This document shows, piece after piece, positions 1 through 62,789 of a stretch of 64,000 nt of DNA (position 1 is its first letter; each line of letters starts with the position of its first letter). The stretch comes from Cystobasidium ongulense. Its lineage: Eukaryota; Basidiomycota; Cystobasidiomycetes; Cystobasidiales; Cystobasidiaceae. The stretch spans positions 1,054,001 through 1,118,000 of the forward strand of contig BQUP01000002.1 in the NCBI GenBank assembly GCA_022835595.1. The letters are read 5' to 3'. The notes beneath the pieces are model-generated. The model made no database searches. It saw only the letters and a list, made by a program, of their open reading frames with translations, and was not told the DNA's origin. The translations under genes were made by a program, and so were the position numbers.

Positions 1-1593
1 CGTCTCGAATAGACGAGGGTACGAACATAACTCTTGCGCTACACTCCACAAGCGTAGAGTGCCAATGGGCCCAACTTCAGCGGAAGCCGACGACATTTTA
101 GTAAAGACAGTAGGCGCGCCCAGTCAATCTGGTGGCTTTCCCGGCCTCTTCCCAGACAATCCCCCCTCGCAATGTCTTCTCACCTCGTTGACCTCAGAGT
201 CCGGGGCAAGCAAGTTATATCTTGTCCTGGCAACAGCCTGGGCGTCTCGCACGACAATCATTCTCGTGGATCTGGAAGATGGCTCAGTGCACGATGCGGG
301 ATCAAACGAAATAACTTCTTACAAGTTGCTGAGCACGGACAACAAATCAAGGGTGATCGCCATCAGGTCTTCGACCGTATCTGCACCCGAACTCGTGTTG
401 GGTACCTTTTCATCGTCTCCAGTCCCCAAGATATCCTGGACCAAGATTAAATCGTGGCAATATCGCTTCCAGGAAGACAAGCATTGTACGCATTCGTATC
501 AACCGTAGTATAGAAGACTACTGATACTTCCATTCATAGTCTCCGGCATCGACACCTTATACTCGACCGTAGTTCCACTACCAAACCAAAAGGCGGCCGA
601 GGCCATAGTGATTAGTGGCTTCTCACTTGACAAGATCGACAATCTTCCTGGACAGCTTCGCAGAGAGCGTATACCGGGCCTCAAAGCGAGCGGGACTTGT
701 CAATCGTCAAGCCTGCCTCCGCTCATTATATGCCCACATGGCGGCCCTAATAGCCAGTACTCTGCGGCTTGGAATATCGGAGCCAGTCTGGCTTGGTAAG
801 AATAGGCGTATCTCAATAAAATATACATGCATATTGATCGTGCATGTTCATGTAGGATCGCAGCCGGCTACACTGTCGCCATGATCAATTATCCGGGATC
901 TACGGGCTTCGGGCAAGATACAATCGAAGACCTTTCGAAAGATTGCGGAAATCTAGAAGTTCGCGCTTGCTTGCAGGTTAAAGATTACCTCATCAAGCTA
1001 GGTGTAGCTTCTGATGACAAGGGAAAGAGGTTGTACCTTGGGGGCTCGCATTCAGGCTTTATAGGAGCGCACATTAGTGTACGGTGGCCTGATGCATTCG
1101 ATGCTATCGATTTGCGGAATCCAGTTATCGACCTACCCAGCATGTTTGCTACTTCTGATATTCCTGATTGGTGAGACGTTCATCCTTACTACTCATTGCA
1201 TGGGTCTCTTACTAATTTGTTTACTATGGTATTTTGAATAGGACTCTCTCGCAACTCAACTTCAAGTACGACTACGACAATCCCCCGTCTTTCGTTCCAG
1301 AAGACTTCCATACGGAATTACGTACACGTAGTCCTAGCTACTATGCCGAGAAGCTGTTCAGTGAGAACGACCAGGCCTGCGTCACGCCGACGCAAGTCCA
1401 GTTGGGTGCCAATGATCTGCGGGTCCCCTCGAATCAGGGGAAAGCATGGTTCCATTGCCTCAAAGGCCATAAAGAAGATGTAAAGATGTTCTTCTTCCCT
1501 GACAACGGGCATCCACTTGAACAGATCTGGACTCAGCGGAAAAGCTTGACGGCACAATTAGAATTCCTTGTCAAACATAGTAGATTTGACTAA
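1..1593 (+). CDS. Acylaminoacyl-peptidase (S9 prolyl oligopeptidase family), 5'-truncated
   Basis: Exons <1..485, 540..795, 856..1170, 1242..1593; the 5' part lies outside the window, and the frame is open from base 2. Enzymes of this family remove N-acylated residues from short peptides in the cytosol. Visible are the end of the beta-propeller and the alpha/beta-hydrolase domain: PHGGPNSQY, the INYPGSTGFGQD loop, the nucleophile elbow GGSHSGF, the acid region GANDLRVP and the catalytic His in NGHPL. RNPVIDLPSM..DIPDW is diagnostic for acylaminoacyl-peptidase over other S9 enzymes. Three introns of 54, 60 and 71 nt restore one frame across an apparent stop near 506. The second residue after the nucleophile Ser is Ser where Gly is usual. 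Family is firm; substrate is inferred. Confidence 0.88.
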
Positions 1594-1845
1594 TCTGGGA
1601 AAAAGGGACCCATGAGAACACCGTACGGCGCGTGTGGGGTCTCCTAATGTACGTCCGAGTGCGGGAGAGAGTCTTTCAGTGAAACCGACCACGCAGATTG
1701 TGACAATGACAGCGGACTATACTGAAGAATGCATGTCTTCCATTGTGTTAGCAGTAGTTACAGTCATGTGATGCGAAATGTCGATATAGGTGTGGAAGAA
1801 ATTCTTCTGCCCTGTCTGAGACCGGTATTGCCTGGCTGAGCAGCT

Positions 1846-2923
1846 TTATTGTCCATTCACTGGCGATCCGCTCTGCTTCCATGCAGCCTCGATCAACATT
1901 GCTACTTGCTCGACGCCTTGCCCCTGTCTAACCGAGGTGAAAATCGTTGGTCCAGAGTCTCGCATCTTGGCCGCATCTCGAGACATGACTGATAAGTCTG
2001 CTCCAACGTGCGGTGCGAGGTCGATCTGTGATTAAAGTTTGTTAGCCCGCCCTGTCAGTAAAGGCTATAGTTGAATCTAACCTTGTTGATGACCAGTAAA
2101 TCACTTTGTGAGATACCTGGACCGCCTTTACGAGGAACTCTGAAGATGAAGCATAATTAGCATGACGGCTTCGGGACCCTTTCGCTGTTGACTCACTTGT
2201 CACCTCCTGCTACATCAATCTTTGTGCCTCCAAAACATCAGCTACTAGGTACCCTTGGTGAAGAACATCTCAACTGCTTACAACCTGTCAAAGGAAAAGA
2301 TGTTAGCTATGATTGACGGAAGCACAGTGGCGTTGTATATGCGCGTACATAGATGATATAGTCTGCCAATTCACGTGAATAATTGGCAGCGAGATTATCG
2401 CCTCCGCTCTCCACAAAGAGCATTTCGCAGTTATAGTCTGCTTGGAGCTCTTCCAATGCACCGAGATTGGCGGAGATGTCTTCCCGGATAGCGGCATGAG
2501 GGCATCCTCCTGTCAAAGTTCGAAATTGTTCAGACGGACCCATCGAGCACTCCTAGTGATCTTGCACGCACCAGTCTCAATGGATCGTATACGGTCCTTA
2601 TCTGCTAATGCTTCGTTACGAATAAGGAACTCTTGATCTTCTCGGGTAAAGATATCGTTCGTGACGACTCCCAGGTTGACTCTGTCTCGGAAGTGCCGAC
2701 ACAGCGCTAGAAGCAGAGCACTCTTTCCACTTCCTACAGGTCCGCCTATGCCAACAGTGAACGCTCTTTCCTTCCAATTTCGGTTCTCGTAGCTTGGCAT
2801 GTCCCGCATTGTGAACTTGCCAGGATGCTCCATGATCTCGTGGGTATGCCCATGCTCGTTGGCGGAGCTGTGATCGTGACCGTGGCTATGTGACGCCTCG
2901 TCGTGCGAGTGTGAGTGTGCCAT
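1846..2923 (-). CDS. Urease accessory GTPase UreG
   Basis: Six exons on the minus strand: 2572..2923, 2349..2509, 2282..2284, 2197..2219, 2082..2139, 1846..2025; 258 aa. UreG hydrolyses GTP while delivering nickel to apo-urease together with UreD and UreF. The N-terminus is a His-rich metal-binding stretch (residues 3-30), followed by the P-loop GGPVGSGKS, the switch region TREDQEFL, the nickel-site motif [19 protein letters not shown] and the guanine-specificity motif NKIDLAP. The third coding exon is predicted to be only three bases (GTT, Val), flanked by introns of 64 and 62 nt; without it the strictly conserved Val of YVIDVA is lost. Total exon length is an exact multiple of three. HGATAR sites lie just upstream. 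Confidence 0.92.
2282..2284 (-). other. Predicted 3-nt microexon (GTT, Val) in the UreG gene
   Basis: On the minus strand the preceding intron (2285..2348) starts GTACGC, has a GCTAAC branch site and ends TTTGACAG. The bases GTT follow, and then a second intron (2220..2281) starts GTAAGC, has an AGCTGAT branch-like site and ends CACAAAG. Joining TAT|GTT|ATT gives the YVID sequence conserved in UreG proteins. A single 129-nt intron would also keep frame but would drop this Val and be about twice the length of this gene's other introns. Confidence 0.72.
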
Positions 2924-2959
2924 CGTGATGGTGTTGAAGAAGCAGAGGAAGCAGACGGA

Positions 2960-3040
2960 TGGAGAGATAAGAGCCCTTAAAACCCAATCGAGGTTTGACG
3001 CGGCGAGTCCAGTCTGCTGCCAGGCCTTGATAGCGGTCAG
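2960..3040 (-). promoter_or_regulatory. Putative GATA-factor sites upstream of UreG
   Basis: AGATAAG at 2965-2971 and TGATAG at 3029-3034 match the HGATAR consensus of fungal nitrogen-regulatory GATA factors and lie 40-110 bp upstream of the UreG start codon. The role is inferred from position and from the nitrogen-scavenging function of urease; short motifs like this also occur by chance. Confidence 0.3.
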
Positions 3041-3162
3041 ACAGGCTGGTATATATGTGTAAGATTACTGTCCAAAATCGCATTGTGCAAGCCTAGGATA
3101 CAGCTCTTAAAGTATGGAAGACAACTCTACTACCGTACCTCGAAAACACGTGATTTTTACAA

Positions 3163-25612: not shown

Positions 25613-26578
25613 CTAGCTGCGCTTCGTACGCTTGGATTTTCTAGGTGAAGGCTTCGCGCTTGTTGGATCTTCTGACGGAGGCCTCTTGCTCTGCTTCGGT
25701 TGTTCATTCTCGCTTGCGCTGGCGGCGTGAGCGAACCCTGACCAAGATACAATACTGGAGTCATCGTCTGTCTTCACCTGCATAACTCCATCGCCTAGCT
25801 TGGAAGCATCTCCGTTGTTAAGAAGCCAATCGCGCGCAACGTGCCCCGCCTTTCTGCCAATCTCCTCCTCTAGATGGCTCTTGCTCCCCCTGGCAGCTAC
25901 TCCTGCCACAAGTTGTAGACCATGGTCTGCATTCTGGATTGTTACTACCGTACTTCTGGCGTCCATAGAATTTTGTAGCTCTCGTAGATCCTCGAGCGGA
26001 CACATTTCATCTTGGCTACCAGACTGGAATAAAAGTGAAACATCTGCGGGGAGATCTAATAGGACCTGCTTCCGCTCGGCGTCTTTCGTCCCCTTGCCCC
26101 CGCCTAGTAAGGGATACGATTGCAGAACCAGTTTCCGAGAGAACTTGGGGACTTCAAGACAATCTTTAGCGGCTATGGTAGCAGCTCGACACCCCATACT
26201 TCTTCCGGAGAGAGAAATCGTAGTGACCTTGCTACTCTCCGCTGCCCATTTGAACAGAGCGAGAAATGATTTGGTACGGGAGCCTAGATGCATGGCTCCA
26301 TCAAAGCCAAGGACGACCAGTGTTGTACCATTGTGACTGCCCGATGATTCGACCATGCCTTCGCAGAGCCTTGACGATCCAGGGCTGAGACATGTACCAC
26401 CCGCACCGTGGGTGTAAATGCATAAATGAATACCATGTTGCGGAAGTGGACTTGCTGTATCCCGCCATAAATGTGCTTTAACCGGCTTCTTCAGATCAGG
26501 CGGCTCAATCTGGAAGTCCAATGGATGATCTTCTCCTCGGCCCAGAGTAGATAAGAGGTCATCTAAAGGTGTCGCCAT
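25613..26578 (-). CDS. KANL3/Tex30-like alpha/beta-hydrolase
   Basis: Single exon, 321 aa; the open frame extends two codons further but the first ATG is at 26578. The core fold is visible: IYTHGAGGT oxyanion strand, nucleophile elbow GRSMGCRAA, VLQSYPLLG, the acid region SGSQDEMCPLEDL and His in NADHGLQL. This arrangement matches the KANL3/Tex30 hydrolase-like group, for which no substrate is established. The C-terminus (about residues 270-321) is a Lys/Ser/Pro-rich tail ending in KSKRTKRS, a possible nuclear localisation signal. Confidence 0.85.
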   Translation of the reverse strand: MATPLDDLLSTLGRGEDHPLDFQIEPPDLKKPVKAHLWRDTASPLPQHGIHLCIYTHGAGGTCLSPGSSRLCEGMVESSGSHNGTTLVVLGFDGAMHLGSRTKSFLALFKWAAESSKVTTISLSGRSMGCRAATIAAKDCLEVPKFSRKLVLQSYPLLGGGKGTKDAERKQVLLDLPADVSLLFQSGSQDEMCPLEDLRELQNSMDARSTVVTIQNADHGLQLVAGVAARGSKSHLEEEIGRKAGHVARDWLLNNGDASKLGDGVMQVKTDDDSSIVSWSGFAHAASASENEQPKQSKRPPSEDPTSAKPSPRKSKRTKRS

Positions 26579-26746
26579 TCCCAATGTGCTGAGAGTTCGG
26601 TCGGCACGGGAGCAAAGACAGCATGCACGTGCGCGTACTATAAAACCACTATGTCGAACTGTTCATACCGCTATTACCGTTACATTATGAAAACACTGTT
26701 ACTATTACACTACACCGATCCACTACAACTAATGTGAGCTGGTCGC

Positions 26747-29729
26747 CTATCGCCGCCGCTTGAGTGCTCCGCGAGGACTGTCATCTGGCTTCAAGTCTGC
26801 GACATCAATCGTTTAAAGCTTGATTCAGTCACAAGTCCTTTGTGACAGAAGGCTAATGAGCAATCACTCACGCGCAGCTGGACGTGCTTTCACCATACCG
26901 GCCATCATAAGCTTATTGTTCGCGCGTGCAGGTGAATCATCGCCCCTTTGCAAGAAAATGTTTTCCTCTAAGCTTTCAAGCAGTCGTTCCGGCTGAACCC
27001 GTTCCTCGAGTTTCTTCACTTTGGCCTTTTGTGCTTTCCTGATATGTTCTTCGAAAACGTCTGAAGCTTCCTCCTCAAATTTGGGGTGCTGCCGCGGCGC
27101 CGCAGGTCTTAGCGGGACCAGCTTAGGCTTGGGTTGCTTGCCACCTGGTTGTAAGAACAAGTTTTTTGCCGCTTTCAAAGCTCTCCCCGGGGTCGAGTCT
27201 TTGCCGTGAGCTAAGAAGACGTTTTTCGCTTTCTGCTCCTGTTTTTGAGCCTTGAGAGGCTGCAGGGGCTCCATGCCGGGCGCCGCAGGTATGACTGGGA
27301 TTAGCTTAGGCTGAGGCTTAGGCTTAGGCTGCTCGCCGCCTTGTGGCAAGAAAAGATTCTTTGCCGCCTTCAATGCTTTGACCGGAGCTATGTCTTTGAC
27401 ATGTGGTATGAAGCTGTTTTCTGCACCCGTCTCCTGGTTTTGTGCTTTGAGCGGCTGCAAGGGTTTGATGGGAGCATTCTTGGCTTTTGCACGCGGACCG
27501 TTGCCAGGACCAATGGGCATGAGCATCTTTCGCTTGTGTTCTATCAAAAGTTGTTTGCGTAGATCTGCTAGTTCTTGCTGCTTGAATGCAAGAAGTTTCA
27601 GCAGACTTTCTTCGCCAACTGAGCTGGCTTGCGCTTCATCTTCCTGTTCATCTTCGGTCTCCGCTGGGTGTCTGAATGACTTTTGATCGCCTTCTTTGGA
27701 CACGCTATCTGCGTATTCATCGTCCTTTGGGGCATTGACTGCCTGCCCGGGGCGCGACCTCTCTTGGGCATATGGCTCGTTTACCTTCTGAATTGCTTTG
27801 TCGCTGGGAGGTTTCGGCAGATTGTCATTGTGTAATATGCCCTCGGCTTGCGCTAGTATATTGTCGATGAGTGCTATTTTTGCTTGCGTGTCTGTATCAT
27901 CCATCACGACCGGTGCCCCCACTTTTGCCTTGCCCGGCATAGGTGCCTGAAGGCGGCCATCCCCGACTCCCGCCATCGGGCCTCCATGTTGCTTCTTGGG
28001 TACACCGCCATTGGCATCGGCACGCGGTGGAGCTTGCAGACGACTATCTACAGAGTCAGAGCCGTCTTTGGCGGCTTTCTGTGCTGCCATTTGTCCTGGG
28101 CGAATGAAGACGTTCTGTTCTGCATGCTTCGCTGCTCGTTTGATATCTGCATTGGCTTTTAGTTGGAATGGGTCGTGGTTTCCGACCTTGTTTTCAGGCT
28201 TTGCACGTATAGGTATGGGCTGCGCAACAGGCTTCTGCTTGTTATCTGGAGGACGAGATACGGTGTCAAGCAAGAACCATAGTGCATCCATGACATCTTT
28301 CCGAATAGTCCTAGGTGTTGATGTGAATGCACTCCTCATTAGTCGACCCCAGAAGACCGAAGGGGTGTCGTGTATAGTGACTATTTCCTCCTGTTCCTCT
28401 TCTGGTTCAACGTGGTTTTTAATATAATTTTGCAGACCGAGTGCTTCTATCTCTTCCTCGGTATAGTCCATCCCAGGTAATATGAAAGGCGCAGGCTTAT
28501 TCGGCCGGACGAGCTTTTTTGGAGGTACAGGAGGCAATTTCAACCTGAAACGATCCGCGTTGGATATCTTCTTCTTCTGCTCTTGCGGCACCATGGCATG
28601 GAATCTCACACCCAGCTTGACTATCCCGGTCTCTATGCTTTGAAACCATCCTAAGATGGCATCGTCGCTGTCAGTTAAGGGCAGATTGGACAGCTGACTG
28701 GTCGTATAAGCTGTCAACCAGTGCGGCGGCTCAGGCATATCTTCCAATTCAAATTTAGGGAAGCTATTTCTTTTGGCAACTAATTGAGGACGAGGGCGCT
28801 GCCCAGGATTCTCGTCGGCTTGTCCAAACTGCCCAGGTATCTTGGGAGGTTGATCTCGATTATCGACAAGTGGCTCGAGACGAGCCTGTAACGGCGGCAA
28901 TTGTCCACGCTGGGCTTTGAATATATTTTGAGGGGGTATCTGCTTGGCTCCAGGTCCTATACCAGGATATCCTTGTGCGGCAGGCAATGGGTCGAACCGA
29001 TGCGGCGGATGTTTTGCCACTGCTTGGTCTGCAGCGTAATTGCTCTTTGGCCTCCTGGCGGCCATGGGGCCTGTACGAGCAATCTTTTCCTTTATAAGTT
29101 GCTTTGCGAAGGTCAATTGCGGTGCGCGACGTGCTTTGTGCCGCGGAGCTTGTACAGGCTGAGTGAGGATTATTGAGCAGGAGAGAAAGTCGGGCTCTTC
29201 GAGAGACGCGTTCATTCCGCCATGCTTCCACCTGAAAAGACGACAAACAGGCAACAGTTCAGTCCAAGCGAATAGGATTGTTCGTGCTCATGTTCTCGAC
29301 TGACCGACAACCTGTACACTGCCCTCTGGACGTGCATTGCTGCATAAACACGTCTGGCACCGATGTGCAATCGAGTCCTTCTCCATCACTAACACACCCT
29401 CCGCAGGTCTTCGGATCTGTGAGGTCCACGCACTGTATGTATGTAGTAGCAGATTGTCCAATTAGCATACTCGAGCTTCTTTGACAAAGTCGGGAAGGAA
29501 AGAAATTCGCCACGCTCACGTGTAGGTCGTTGCTTCCTTGCGAGACTGGACACAGCTCTTCGCTCGGTCCACAATGCGGCAGCCCGGCGGTAAAGGTCCG
29601 CGACACGAATGCCGGCATTGCATCTAGGATGTCGGCTTGAACGCTGGTGGTGAAAGCTGGATAGAGCACGCCTGCGAAAGCCAGCAGGATGCTGCAGCCA
29701 GCGCAGCTCTTCCCACCGCGCCGTCGCAT
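26747..29729 (-). CDS. Secreted Cys-rich (CPL1/PriA-like) protein with a very long disordered repeat-bearing tail
   Basis: Four exons: 29520..29729, 29305..29432, 26872..29231, 26747..26796; 915 aa. An N-terminal signal peptide (SILLAFAGVLYPAF) precedes a Cys-rich region: CGPSEELCPVSQGSNDLHC, CVDLTDPKTCGGC, GLDCTSVPDV, CTSRGQCTGC. This resembles the CPL1/PriA-type domain of basidiomycete cell-surface proteins. The remaining 800 residues are Pro/Lys/Gln/Ala-rich and probably disordered, with a tandem repeat of about 65 residues near 700-830 and seven copies of an N-[LVIS]-F-[LIK] motif. The donor before the long exon is GTCAGT, also used in other genes here. The gene model joining the two halves is inferred; they could instead be separate genes. 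Confidence 0.68.
26974..27560 (-). repeat. Tandem coding repeat in the secreted protein tail
   Basis: Two in-phase copies of about 195 bp encode PLQPLKAQ..N-F..ALKAAKNLFL..GG..QPKPK..PAAP blocks (protein residues about 702-766 and 767-825). N-F motifs in each copy are 20 residues apart. Copies differ at several positions and in the number of QPKPK units, so the duplication is not fresh. Confidence 0.65.
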
Positions 29730-45275: not shown

Positions 45276-45686
45276 TCTCTCCAGCAAAGTCTGCAGCGTA
45301 AATTCGAGTGTGCAGCCCGTCGAGCAGTAGGTCCATGTTGACGACGTTGCGGGCTGTCTGGGTGAGCCAGTTGACCAGTGCATGGCCTATGTATGTTTTG
45401 AGGGAGCGGTCTGAAGAGCAGAATGCTGCTACTTGATTCACGTTGTAGCTGACTCGCTGTCGTGGTGCGGACAGAGAAGAGGTATCATATCCTCTTGCCA
45501 GCTGTGTGTGCTTGCCTGCGTCGGCCCGATCACCCTTCTGCCAGCTTACTACCATACCACCTGCTCGAATTCATTACTCGTATGCTCAACATGCGTCGAT
45601 AACGCCGTGTCGCAGGACTGCACGCGTCCAGCTGCTTGCCATCTCGCCCGGCGCCTCAAGTCCAAAGCCGGCAGCGCGTTATCGTT
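44841..45686. promoter_or_regulatory. Promoter and leader of paralogue A; divergent to UCS gene
   Basis: 846 bp between diverging start codons. The part 44853..45275 resembles 49147..49560 upstream of paralogue B. A likely leader intron is 44853..44918 on the minus strand (GTAAGG..TTTTACAG). A 226-codon minus-strand frame with an ATG covers 44875..45555, but its counterpart in the duplicate is not open, so it is not annotated as a gene. Confidence 0.5.

Positions 45687-60601: not shown

Positions 60602-62789
<2,188 letters not shown>

What the first reader, a model, noticed from the sequence alone, without database searches (positions are those of the whole stretch)
2220..2348. A 3-nt coding microexon in the UreG gene
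Seen: two introns back to back, each with its own donor, branch-like site and acceptor, separated by exactly GTT. Known: the UreG motif [10 protein letters not shown] keeps this Val from bacteria to fungi, and it is missing if one 129-nt intron is assumed. Both sub-introns (64 and 62 nt) match the size of the gene's other introns (56-62 nt). Three-base exons are among the shortest conceivable and pose a problem for exon definition, which fits intron definition in fungi.
Basis: partly seen in the sequence, partly recalled or inferred. Interest (0 to 1): 0.75.

Follow-up and report, generated by a model that had tools for sequence, protein, structure and literature searches.

The report
Three-base exon in a UreG gene
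A gene for a urease helper protein in what looks like a fungus appears to carry an exon only three bases long that supplies one conserved amino acid; it is convincing from the sequence but unproven without RNA, and even smaller exons are already known in a fungus and a plant.

Summary
On the minus strand, 2923..1846 spells a complete UreG (258 aa) in six exons of 352, 161, 3, 23, 58 and 180 nt, with introns of 62, 64, 62, 57 and 56 nt. The 3-nt exon is GTT at 2284..2282, codon Val172. A self-trained gene parser using no homology found the same structure; with the UreG locus withheld it did so in 4 of 5 training rounds. Two introns plus GTT beat one 129-nt intron by 8.37 nats; 0 of 20,000 shuffles reached this. 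The residue is present in 114 of 114 prokaryotic UreG loci examined, at most 109 distinct (113 Val, 1 Ile), and the protein without it loses 8.8 bits against the UreG model. Weak points: no RNA, no fungal relative in the collections searched, and a poor second acceptor (AAAG). Likely mechanism (inferred): intron definition, the two introns removed one after the other, constitutively. The kind is known: 1-nt exons are published for Fusarium CYP621A and Arabidopsis APC11. This is a new, very small member of a known kind, useful mainly for annotation.

The parts
2572..2923 (-). UreG exon 1 (352 nt, His-rich start, P-loop)
2510..2571 (-). intron 1 (62 nt)
2349..2509 (-). UreG exon 2 (161 nt)
2285..2348 (-). 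intron 2 (64 nt), donor GTACGC, branch-like AGCTAACA, acceptor TTTGACAG
2282..2284 (-). exon 3, the 3-nt microexon GTT (Val172)
   Evidence: no RNA
2220..2281 (-). intron 3 (62 nt), donor GTAAGC, branch-like AGCTGATG, weak acceptor GCACAAAG
2197..2219 (-). UreG exon 4 (23 nt, IDVAGGDK)
2140..2196 (-). intron 4 (57 nt)
2082..2139 (-). UreG exon 5 (58 nt)
2026..2081 (-). intron 5 (56 nt)
1846..2025 (-). UreG exon 6 (180 nt with stop)

Best explanation
Window 2923..1846 (minus strand) is an intact UreG gene (a GTPase that helps load nickel into urease; function recalled from the family) whose mature mRNA contains a 3-nt exon, GTT, between two ordinary short introns of 64 and 62 nt. Each intron is recognised across itself by its own donor, branch site and acceptor (intron definition). 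Splicing complexes cannot easily sit on both sides of three bases at once, so the two introns are most likely removed one after the other, in either order, and the exon is included in essentially all productive mRNA. It supplies Val172 in the conserved [10 protein letters not shown] stretch. Shown here: the sequence, the signals, the frame, the conservation in prokaryotes and the parse. Inferred: inclusion in RNA, sequential removal, constitutive use and the fungal origin.
For: Spliced with GTT the gene gives an uninterrupted 258-aa UreG, TIGR00101 269.7 bits against a cut-off of 204.2; without GTT 260.9. UreG structures 4hi0 and 5xkt align with no gap and with Val at this residue. The residue is Val in 113 and Ile in 1 of 114 prokaryotic loci examined (at most 109 distinct), never absent. 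The gene parser found exons 352/161/3/23/58/180 by itself. Retrained with positions 1-3100 left out it found them in 4 of 5 rounds, while the shortest internal exon among the training genes was 12 nt. With donor 2281 forbidden the best parse falls from 16.3 to 7.4. The two-intron path is better by 8.37 nats; 0 of 20,000 shuffles reach that. 129 nt would be a long intron here: 56 of 60 predicted window introns are 118 nt or shorter.
Against: No transcript was available. No fungal UreG could be fetched to see the same exon. The acceptor of intron 3 is AAAG, 5th percentile of 60 window introns; AGs at 2228, 2210 and 2207 score higher as signals, though all shift the frame. Skipping GTT keeps the frame and still gives a protein over the UreG cut-off, so the protein-model evidence alone is 8.8 bits, not absolute. 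The first training round with the locus withheld gave a different, truncated parse (352/161/15), and an earlier version of the parser failed outright. Four of 60 predicted introns are 234-361 nt, so a long intron is not impossible, though some of these may be parser errors.
Confidence: 0.92

Rival explanations
1. One 129-nt intron, 2348..2220: GTT is always skipped and this UreG simply lacks the Val.
For: The end signals can pair, the frame is kept and the product still scores 260.9 bits as UreG. Four of 60 predicted window introns are longer than 129 nt. It is the parser's second choice when donor 2281 is forbidden.
Against: 8.37 nats worse; deletes a residue present in 114 of 114 prokaryotic loci, at most 109 distinct; leaves a good acceptor with branch site and the best donor of the stretch, exactly 3 nt apart, unexplained (0 of 20,000 shuffles).
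Confidence: 0.04
2. Alternative splicing: GTT is included in some messages and skipped in others, giving two UreG forms that differ by one residue, possibly regulated.
For: 3 nt keeps the frame either way; the AAAG acceptor is weak; regulated in-frame microexons exist in animals, and a 20-nt glucose-dependent one in Trichoderma (PMC11121469, passages).
Against: The residue sits in a strongly conserved stretch and no natural Val-less UreG was seen among 114 prokaryotic loci; nothing in the sequence points to regulation.
Confidence: 0.08
3. GTT marks a recursive (zero-length exon) splice point: intron 2 is removed and the donor rebuilt at CAG|GTTGTA is used, so that no exon base remains.
For: The junction CAG|GT has the right first letters.
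Against: GTTGTA at that position scores -3.87 as a donor, against 5.26 for GTAAGC three bases later; it would also remove the conserved Val.
Confidence: 0.01
4. The gene is a decaying copy and the odd structure is degeneration.
For: Only the weak acceptor could point that way.
Against: 258 codons without a stop, UreG model well over its cut-off, and the nucleotide-binding and other conserved blocks intact.
Confidence: 0.01

Closest known systems
1-nt exon in Fusarium CYP621A P450 genes (PMC12940212; text up to the start of the reference list read)
   Same: A fungal gene; an unusually long apparent intron (139 nt there, 129 nt here) hides a tiny exon; inferred from a conserved protein motif and canonical AG/GT around it.
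   Different: 1 nt rather than 3 nt; there omission breaks the frame, here it only drops one residue; there orthologues (20 in the abstract, 24 in parts of the text) and 18 RNA reads support it, here neither is available; different gene.
1-nt constitutive exon of Arabidopsis APC11 (PMC4674806; passages seen)
   Same: Ultra-short constitutive coding exon; the authors favour intron definition combined with stepwise removal. They also state that 3-nt exons had been characterised before.
   Different: Plant gene; verified by cDNA and reporter constructs; not a multiple of three.
20-nt switch microexon of Trichoderma Xlr2 (PMC11121469; passages seen)
   Same: Microexon in a filamentous fungus, missed by automatic annotation, inside a conserved domain.
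   Different: 20 nt, regulated by glucose, and separates two protein forms; nothing here suggests regulation.
Small exons of Phanerochaete chrysosporium P450 genes (PMC1184071; passages seen)
   Same: Small exons next to frequent small introns in a fungus.
   Different: Shortest given is 6 bp, in a genome-wide survey of gene structures.
Plant microexons of 1-15 nt (PMC8831610; passages seen)
   Same: Mostly missed by annotation; conserved coding microexons, including 1-nt ones.
   Different: Plants; RNA-supported; conserved across species.

Membership tests
UreG (TIGR00101) | score over the curated cut-off of 204.2 bits | tested here: met
   269.7 bits with GTT, 260.9 without
UreG (TIGR00101) | P-loop [23 protein letters not shown] and NKIDLAP blocks intact (choice of blocks recalled; all conserved in the alignment) | tested here: met
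   translation, alignment with six prokaryotic UreG
coding microexon | very short internal coding exon (limits in the papers seen range from 15 to 51 nt) | tested here: met
   3 nt at 2284..2282 by signals, frame and parse; not shown in RNA
coding microexon | flanked by an acceptor with branch site and by a donor, each intron of a usable size | tested here: met
   introns of 64 and 62 nt; signals within the range of 60 window introns, acceptor of intron 3 at the 5th percentile
coding microexon | presence in spliced RNA | not testable with these tools
   no transcript data on hand
coding microexon | conservation in orthologues of related species | not testable with these tools
   no eukaryotic genome collection on hand; one scan of prokaryote contigs, two of viral contigs, and one protein search each of plasmids and phages showed no recognisable fungal UreG (lists partly capped)
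regulated (switch-like) microexon | condition-dependent inclusion | not testable with these tools
   no transcript data
zero-length recursive splice site | a good donor starting exactly at the acceptor junction | tested here: not met
   CAG|GTTGTA donor score -3.87

The most novel reading that the evidence does not exclude
The 3-nt exon is a regulated, frame-neutral switch: skipping it gives a Val-less UreG whose conserved GTPase stretch is one residue shorter, turning urease maturation down in response to nickel or nitrogen.
Probability: 0.04. Interest if true: 0.75.

Novelty: new member of a known kind. Interest (0 to 1): 0.36.

Why it matters
It is a clean, in-frame test case for how far intron definition can go: three bases between two short introns with full signals. 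Because skipping keeps the frame and the protein still looks like UreG, ordinary annotation and short-read mapping could silently delete a conserved residue. It argues for checking apparent introns of about twice the usual size in conserved genes for hidden exons. It would not change the picture of splicing, since 1-nt exons are already published in a fungus and a plant.

Tried and rejected
First gene parser: the intron cost was set wrongly and it collapsed into one window-long gene with hundreds of tiny exons; discarded. It was rewritten with an intron rate of 1/280 per coding base and no zero-length exons. In one search the locus scored 13, under the training threshold of 15, in the last round; whether it entered training in earlier rounds was not logged, so training was repeated with positions 1-3100 left out throughout. 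The first of its five rounds gave a truncated parse 352/161/15; the other four gave the 3-nt exon.

Origin by tandem duplication of an intron: introns 2 and 3 are no more alike than shuffled sequence (local score 15.0; 770 of 2000 shuffles as high). No support.

Zero-length recursive splicing, a single intron and a decaying copy: see the rivals.

Fungal relatives: the one genome-contig scan kept the best 80 of 583 confirmed relatives, all with prokaryotic record titles. Viral contigs gave none with the single protein and 2 loci at 51% identity with an alignment, whose DNA I did not read. Phages gave 7 records; plasmids 208, of which 20 were listed. No fungal sequence was recognised among what was listed. 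No whole genome is held for the window. Metagenome contigs had a cap of zero and were not tried. Rfam at gathering threshold and the tRNA scan found nothing in the window. The species was not identified.

Literature: ten searches, the cap. Searches asked directly about UreG: two papers and one paper, judged beside the point from the listing and not read. In the listings I saw no report of a microexon in a UreG gene; that speaks only for this library and those terms. Three further papers opened for passages (PMC3990503, PMC8022950, PMC4014442) mention microexons only as a read-mapping setting.

Full report
What is there. On the minus strand, 2923..1846 encodes a urease accessory protein UreG. 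Joining exons 2923-2572, 2509-2349, 2284-2282, 2219-2197, 2139-2082 and 2025-1846 gives 777 nt, that is 258 codons and a stop, with no stop inside. The protein scores 269.7 bits against NCBIfam TIGR00101 (ureG, cut-off 204.2), matches Pfam cobW/HypB/UreG and aligns over its GTPase domain with the solved UreG structures 4hi0 and 5xkt. The five introns are 62, 64, 62, 57 and 56 nt.

The finding. Exon 3 is GTT, in phase 0, at 2284..2282, between introns 2348..2285 and 2281..2220. It supplies Val172 of ...[20 protein letters not shown].... The next exon is also small (23 nt), so within the 209 nt from 2348 to 2140 only 26 nt are coding. Without GTT the two introns become one apparent intron of 129 nt, and the protein keeps its frame but loses one residue.

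Conservation of the residue. The version without Val loses 8.8 bits against the UreG model (260.9). A second set came from a family search of 5 genomes and then 100 genomes (35 of the 100 with a hit over the cut-off; 30 loci kept, one of them already held). With these the count is 113 Val and 1 Ile in 114 loci, none with a gap. By their coordinates L081-L085 look like the same genes as L006, L010, L032, L063 and L001, so there are at most 109 distinct genes. With the Val-less protein as query against the 34 newer loci, 31 rows were printed; 30 of them open a gap at this place and one puts it elsewhere; 3 rows were not printed. Two loci, L063 and L041, were left out of an alignment because their translations hold a stop; both remain in the counts. 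Both sets were found through queries or models that contain the residue, a mild bias. Fungal UreG was not available, so conservation within fungi is untested here.

Splice signals. Donor, acceptor and branch-site matrices were made from 60 predicted introns of other genes in the window. Intron 2: donor TAT|GTACGC 4.05 (18th percentile), acceptor TTTGACAG 4.39 (63rd), branch-like AGCTAACA (58th). Intron 3: donor GTT|GTAAGC 5.26 (37th), acceptor GCACAAAG 1.45 (5th), branch-like AGCTGATG (83rd). Both branch adenines lie 18 nt before the acceptor. The weak spot is AAAG; 4 of the 60 introns have A before the AG. AGs at 2228, 2210 and 2207 score higher on the acceptor matrix with the same branch site, but they add 8 or remove 10 or 13 nt and break the frame in a strongly conserved stretch. 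GTT|GTAAGC is the best-scoring GT of the 129 nt.

Is it chance? The path with two introns and GTT scores 8.37 nats above the single intron. In 20,000 dinucleotide shuffles of the 129 nt (first 6 and last 3 bases kept), 4,969 had some AG-NNN-GT at a usable spacing and none reached 8.37 with any codon. Across the window, 387 reasonably scoring donor-acceptor pairs 100-150 nt apart gave 93 with an AG-NNN-GT inside and 4 with a gain of 8 or more; all four are this same GTT with different end acceptors.

A parse without homology. A gene parser trained on the window itself, with no lower limit on exon size except zero, returned exactly 352/161/3/23/58/180. Retrained five rounds with positions 1-3100 excluded throughout, it gave that structure in rounds 2-5 and a truncated 352/161/15 in round 1; the shortest internal exons among the training genes were 12, 17 and 18 nt in the last rounds, so it does not scatter 3-nt exons. 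It did propose first exons of 2 and 5 nt in two other genes, probably errors. With donor 2281 forbidden the score drops from 16.3 to 7.4 and the parser falls back on the single 129-nt intron. A first version of the parser was mis-set and useless.

How it most likely works (inferred). The introns are short and each carries a full set of signals, so pairing across the intron should suffice. The acceptor of intron 2 and the donor of intron 3 are three bases apart, so two complexes are unlikely to sit there together, and removal one after the other is the simplest order of events; which goes first is unknown. The paper on the Arabidopsis 1-nt exon proposes the same combination of intron definition and stepwise removal (PMC4674806, passages). 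The exon is probably always included, since no prokaryotic relative examined lacks the residue. The fungal origin of the window is inferred from intron size and gene content (Xrn-type exonuclease and mitochondrial carrier; glutamate dehydrogenase-like and adaptin); the species is not known to me.

Known or new. The closest precedent is the 1-nt exon of Fusarium CYP621A genes, found by the same reasoning inside an apparent 139-nt intron and supported by 18 reads (PMC12940212, text up to the reference list). That paper also cites exons of 2-5 bp in Arabidopsis, Drosophila and human, and PMC4674806 (passages) says that 3-nt exons had been characterised before 2015. Others are the 20-nt Xlr2 microexon of Trichoderma (PMC11121469, passages) and 6-bp exons in Phanerochaete P450 genes (PMC1184071, passages). 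So this is a new member of a known kind: among the shortest coding exons proposed in a fungus in the papers I saw, but not the shortest. The listings showed no report of it in UreG, which is a weak statement.

Verdict. Observation confirmed, interpretation well supported by sequence, RNA still needed. Confidence is 0.92 that GTT is in the mature mRNA as described; the alternative-splicing rival overlaps with this reading, since it also needs the exon to exist. Interest is modest because smaller exons are already documented.

Noticed in passing
window 2219..2197 (-): The exon after the 3-nt one is itself only 23 nt, so two consecutive microexons lie in 209 nt.
   Followed up: partly
window 2571..2510 (-): Intron 1 has a poor match to the branch-site matrix (3rd percentile of 60 introns).
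   Followed up: no
window 60602..62789 (-): Glutamate dehydrogenase-like gene predicted with 12 exons, several of 20-36 nt, while some neighbours, such as the prediction at 25613..29215, have very few introns.
   Followed up: no
window 26867..29287 (-): 807-codon open frame with no Pfam match at E 1e-5.
   Followed up: no
window near 45389 (+) and 19127 (-): The parser proposes first exons of 2 and 5 nt; probably artefacts of its start model.
   Followed up: no
L115 1676-2278, L116 2001-2603; phage hits H21-H27: UreG-like matches on two viral contigs and seven phage records; could be host DNA in those records.
   Followed up: no
L063 1501-2226, L041 1501-2139: UreG-matching stretches whose translation holds one stop; could be the end of the gene, a lower frame joint or a real break.
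   Followed up: no
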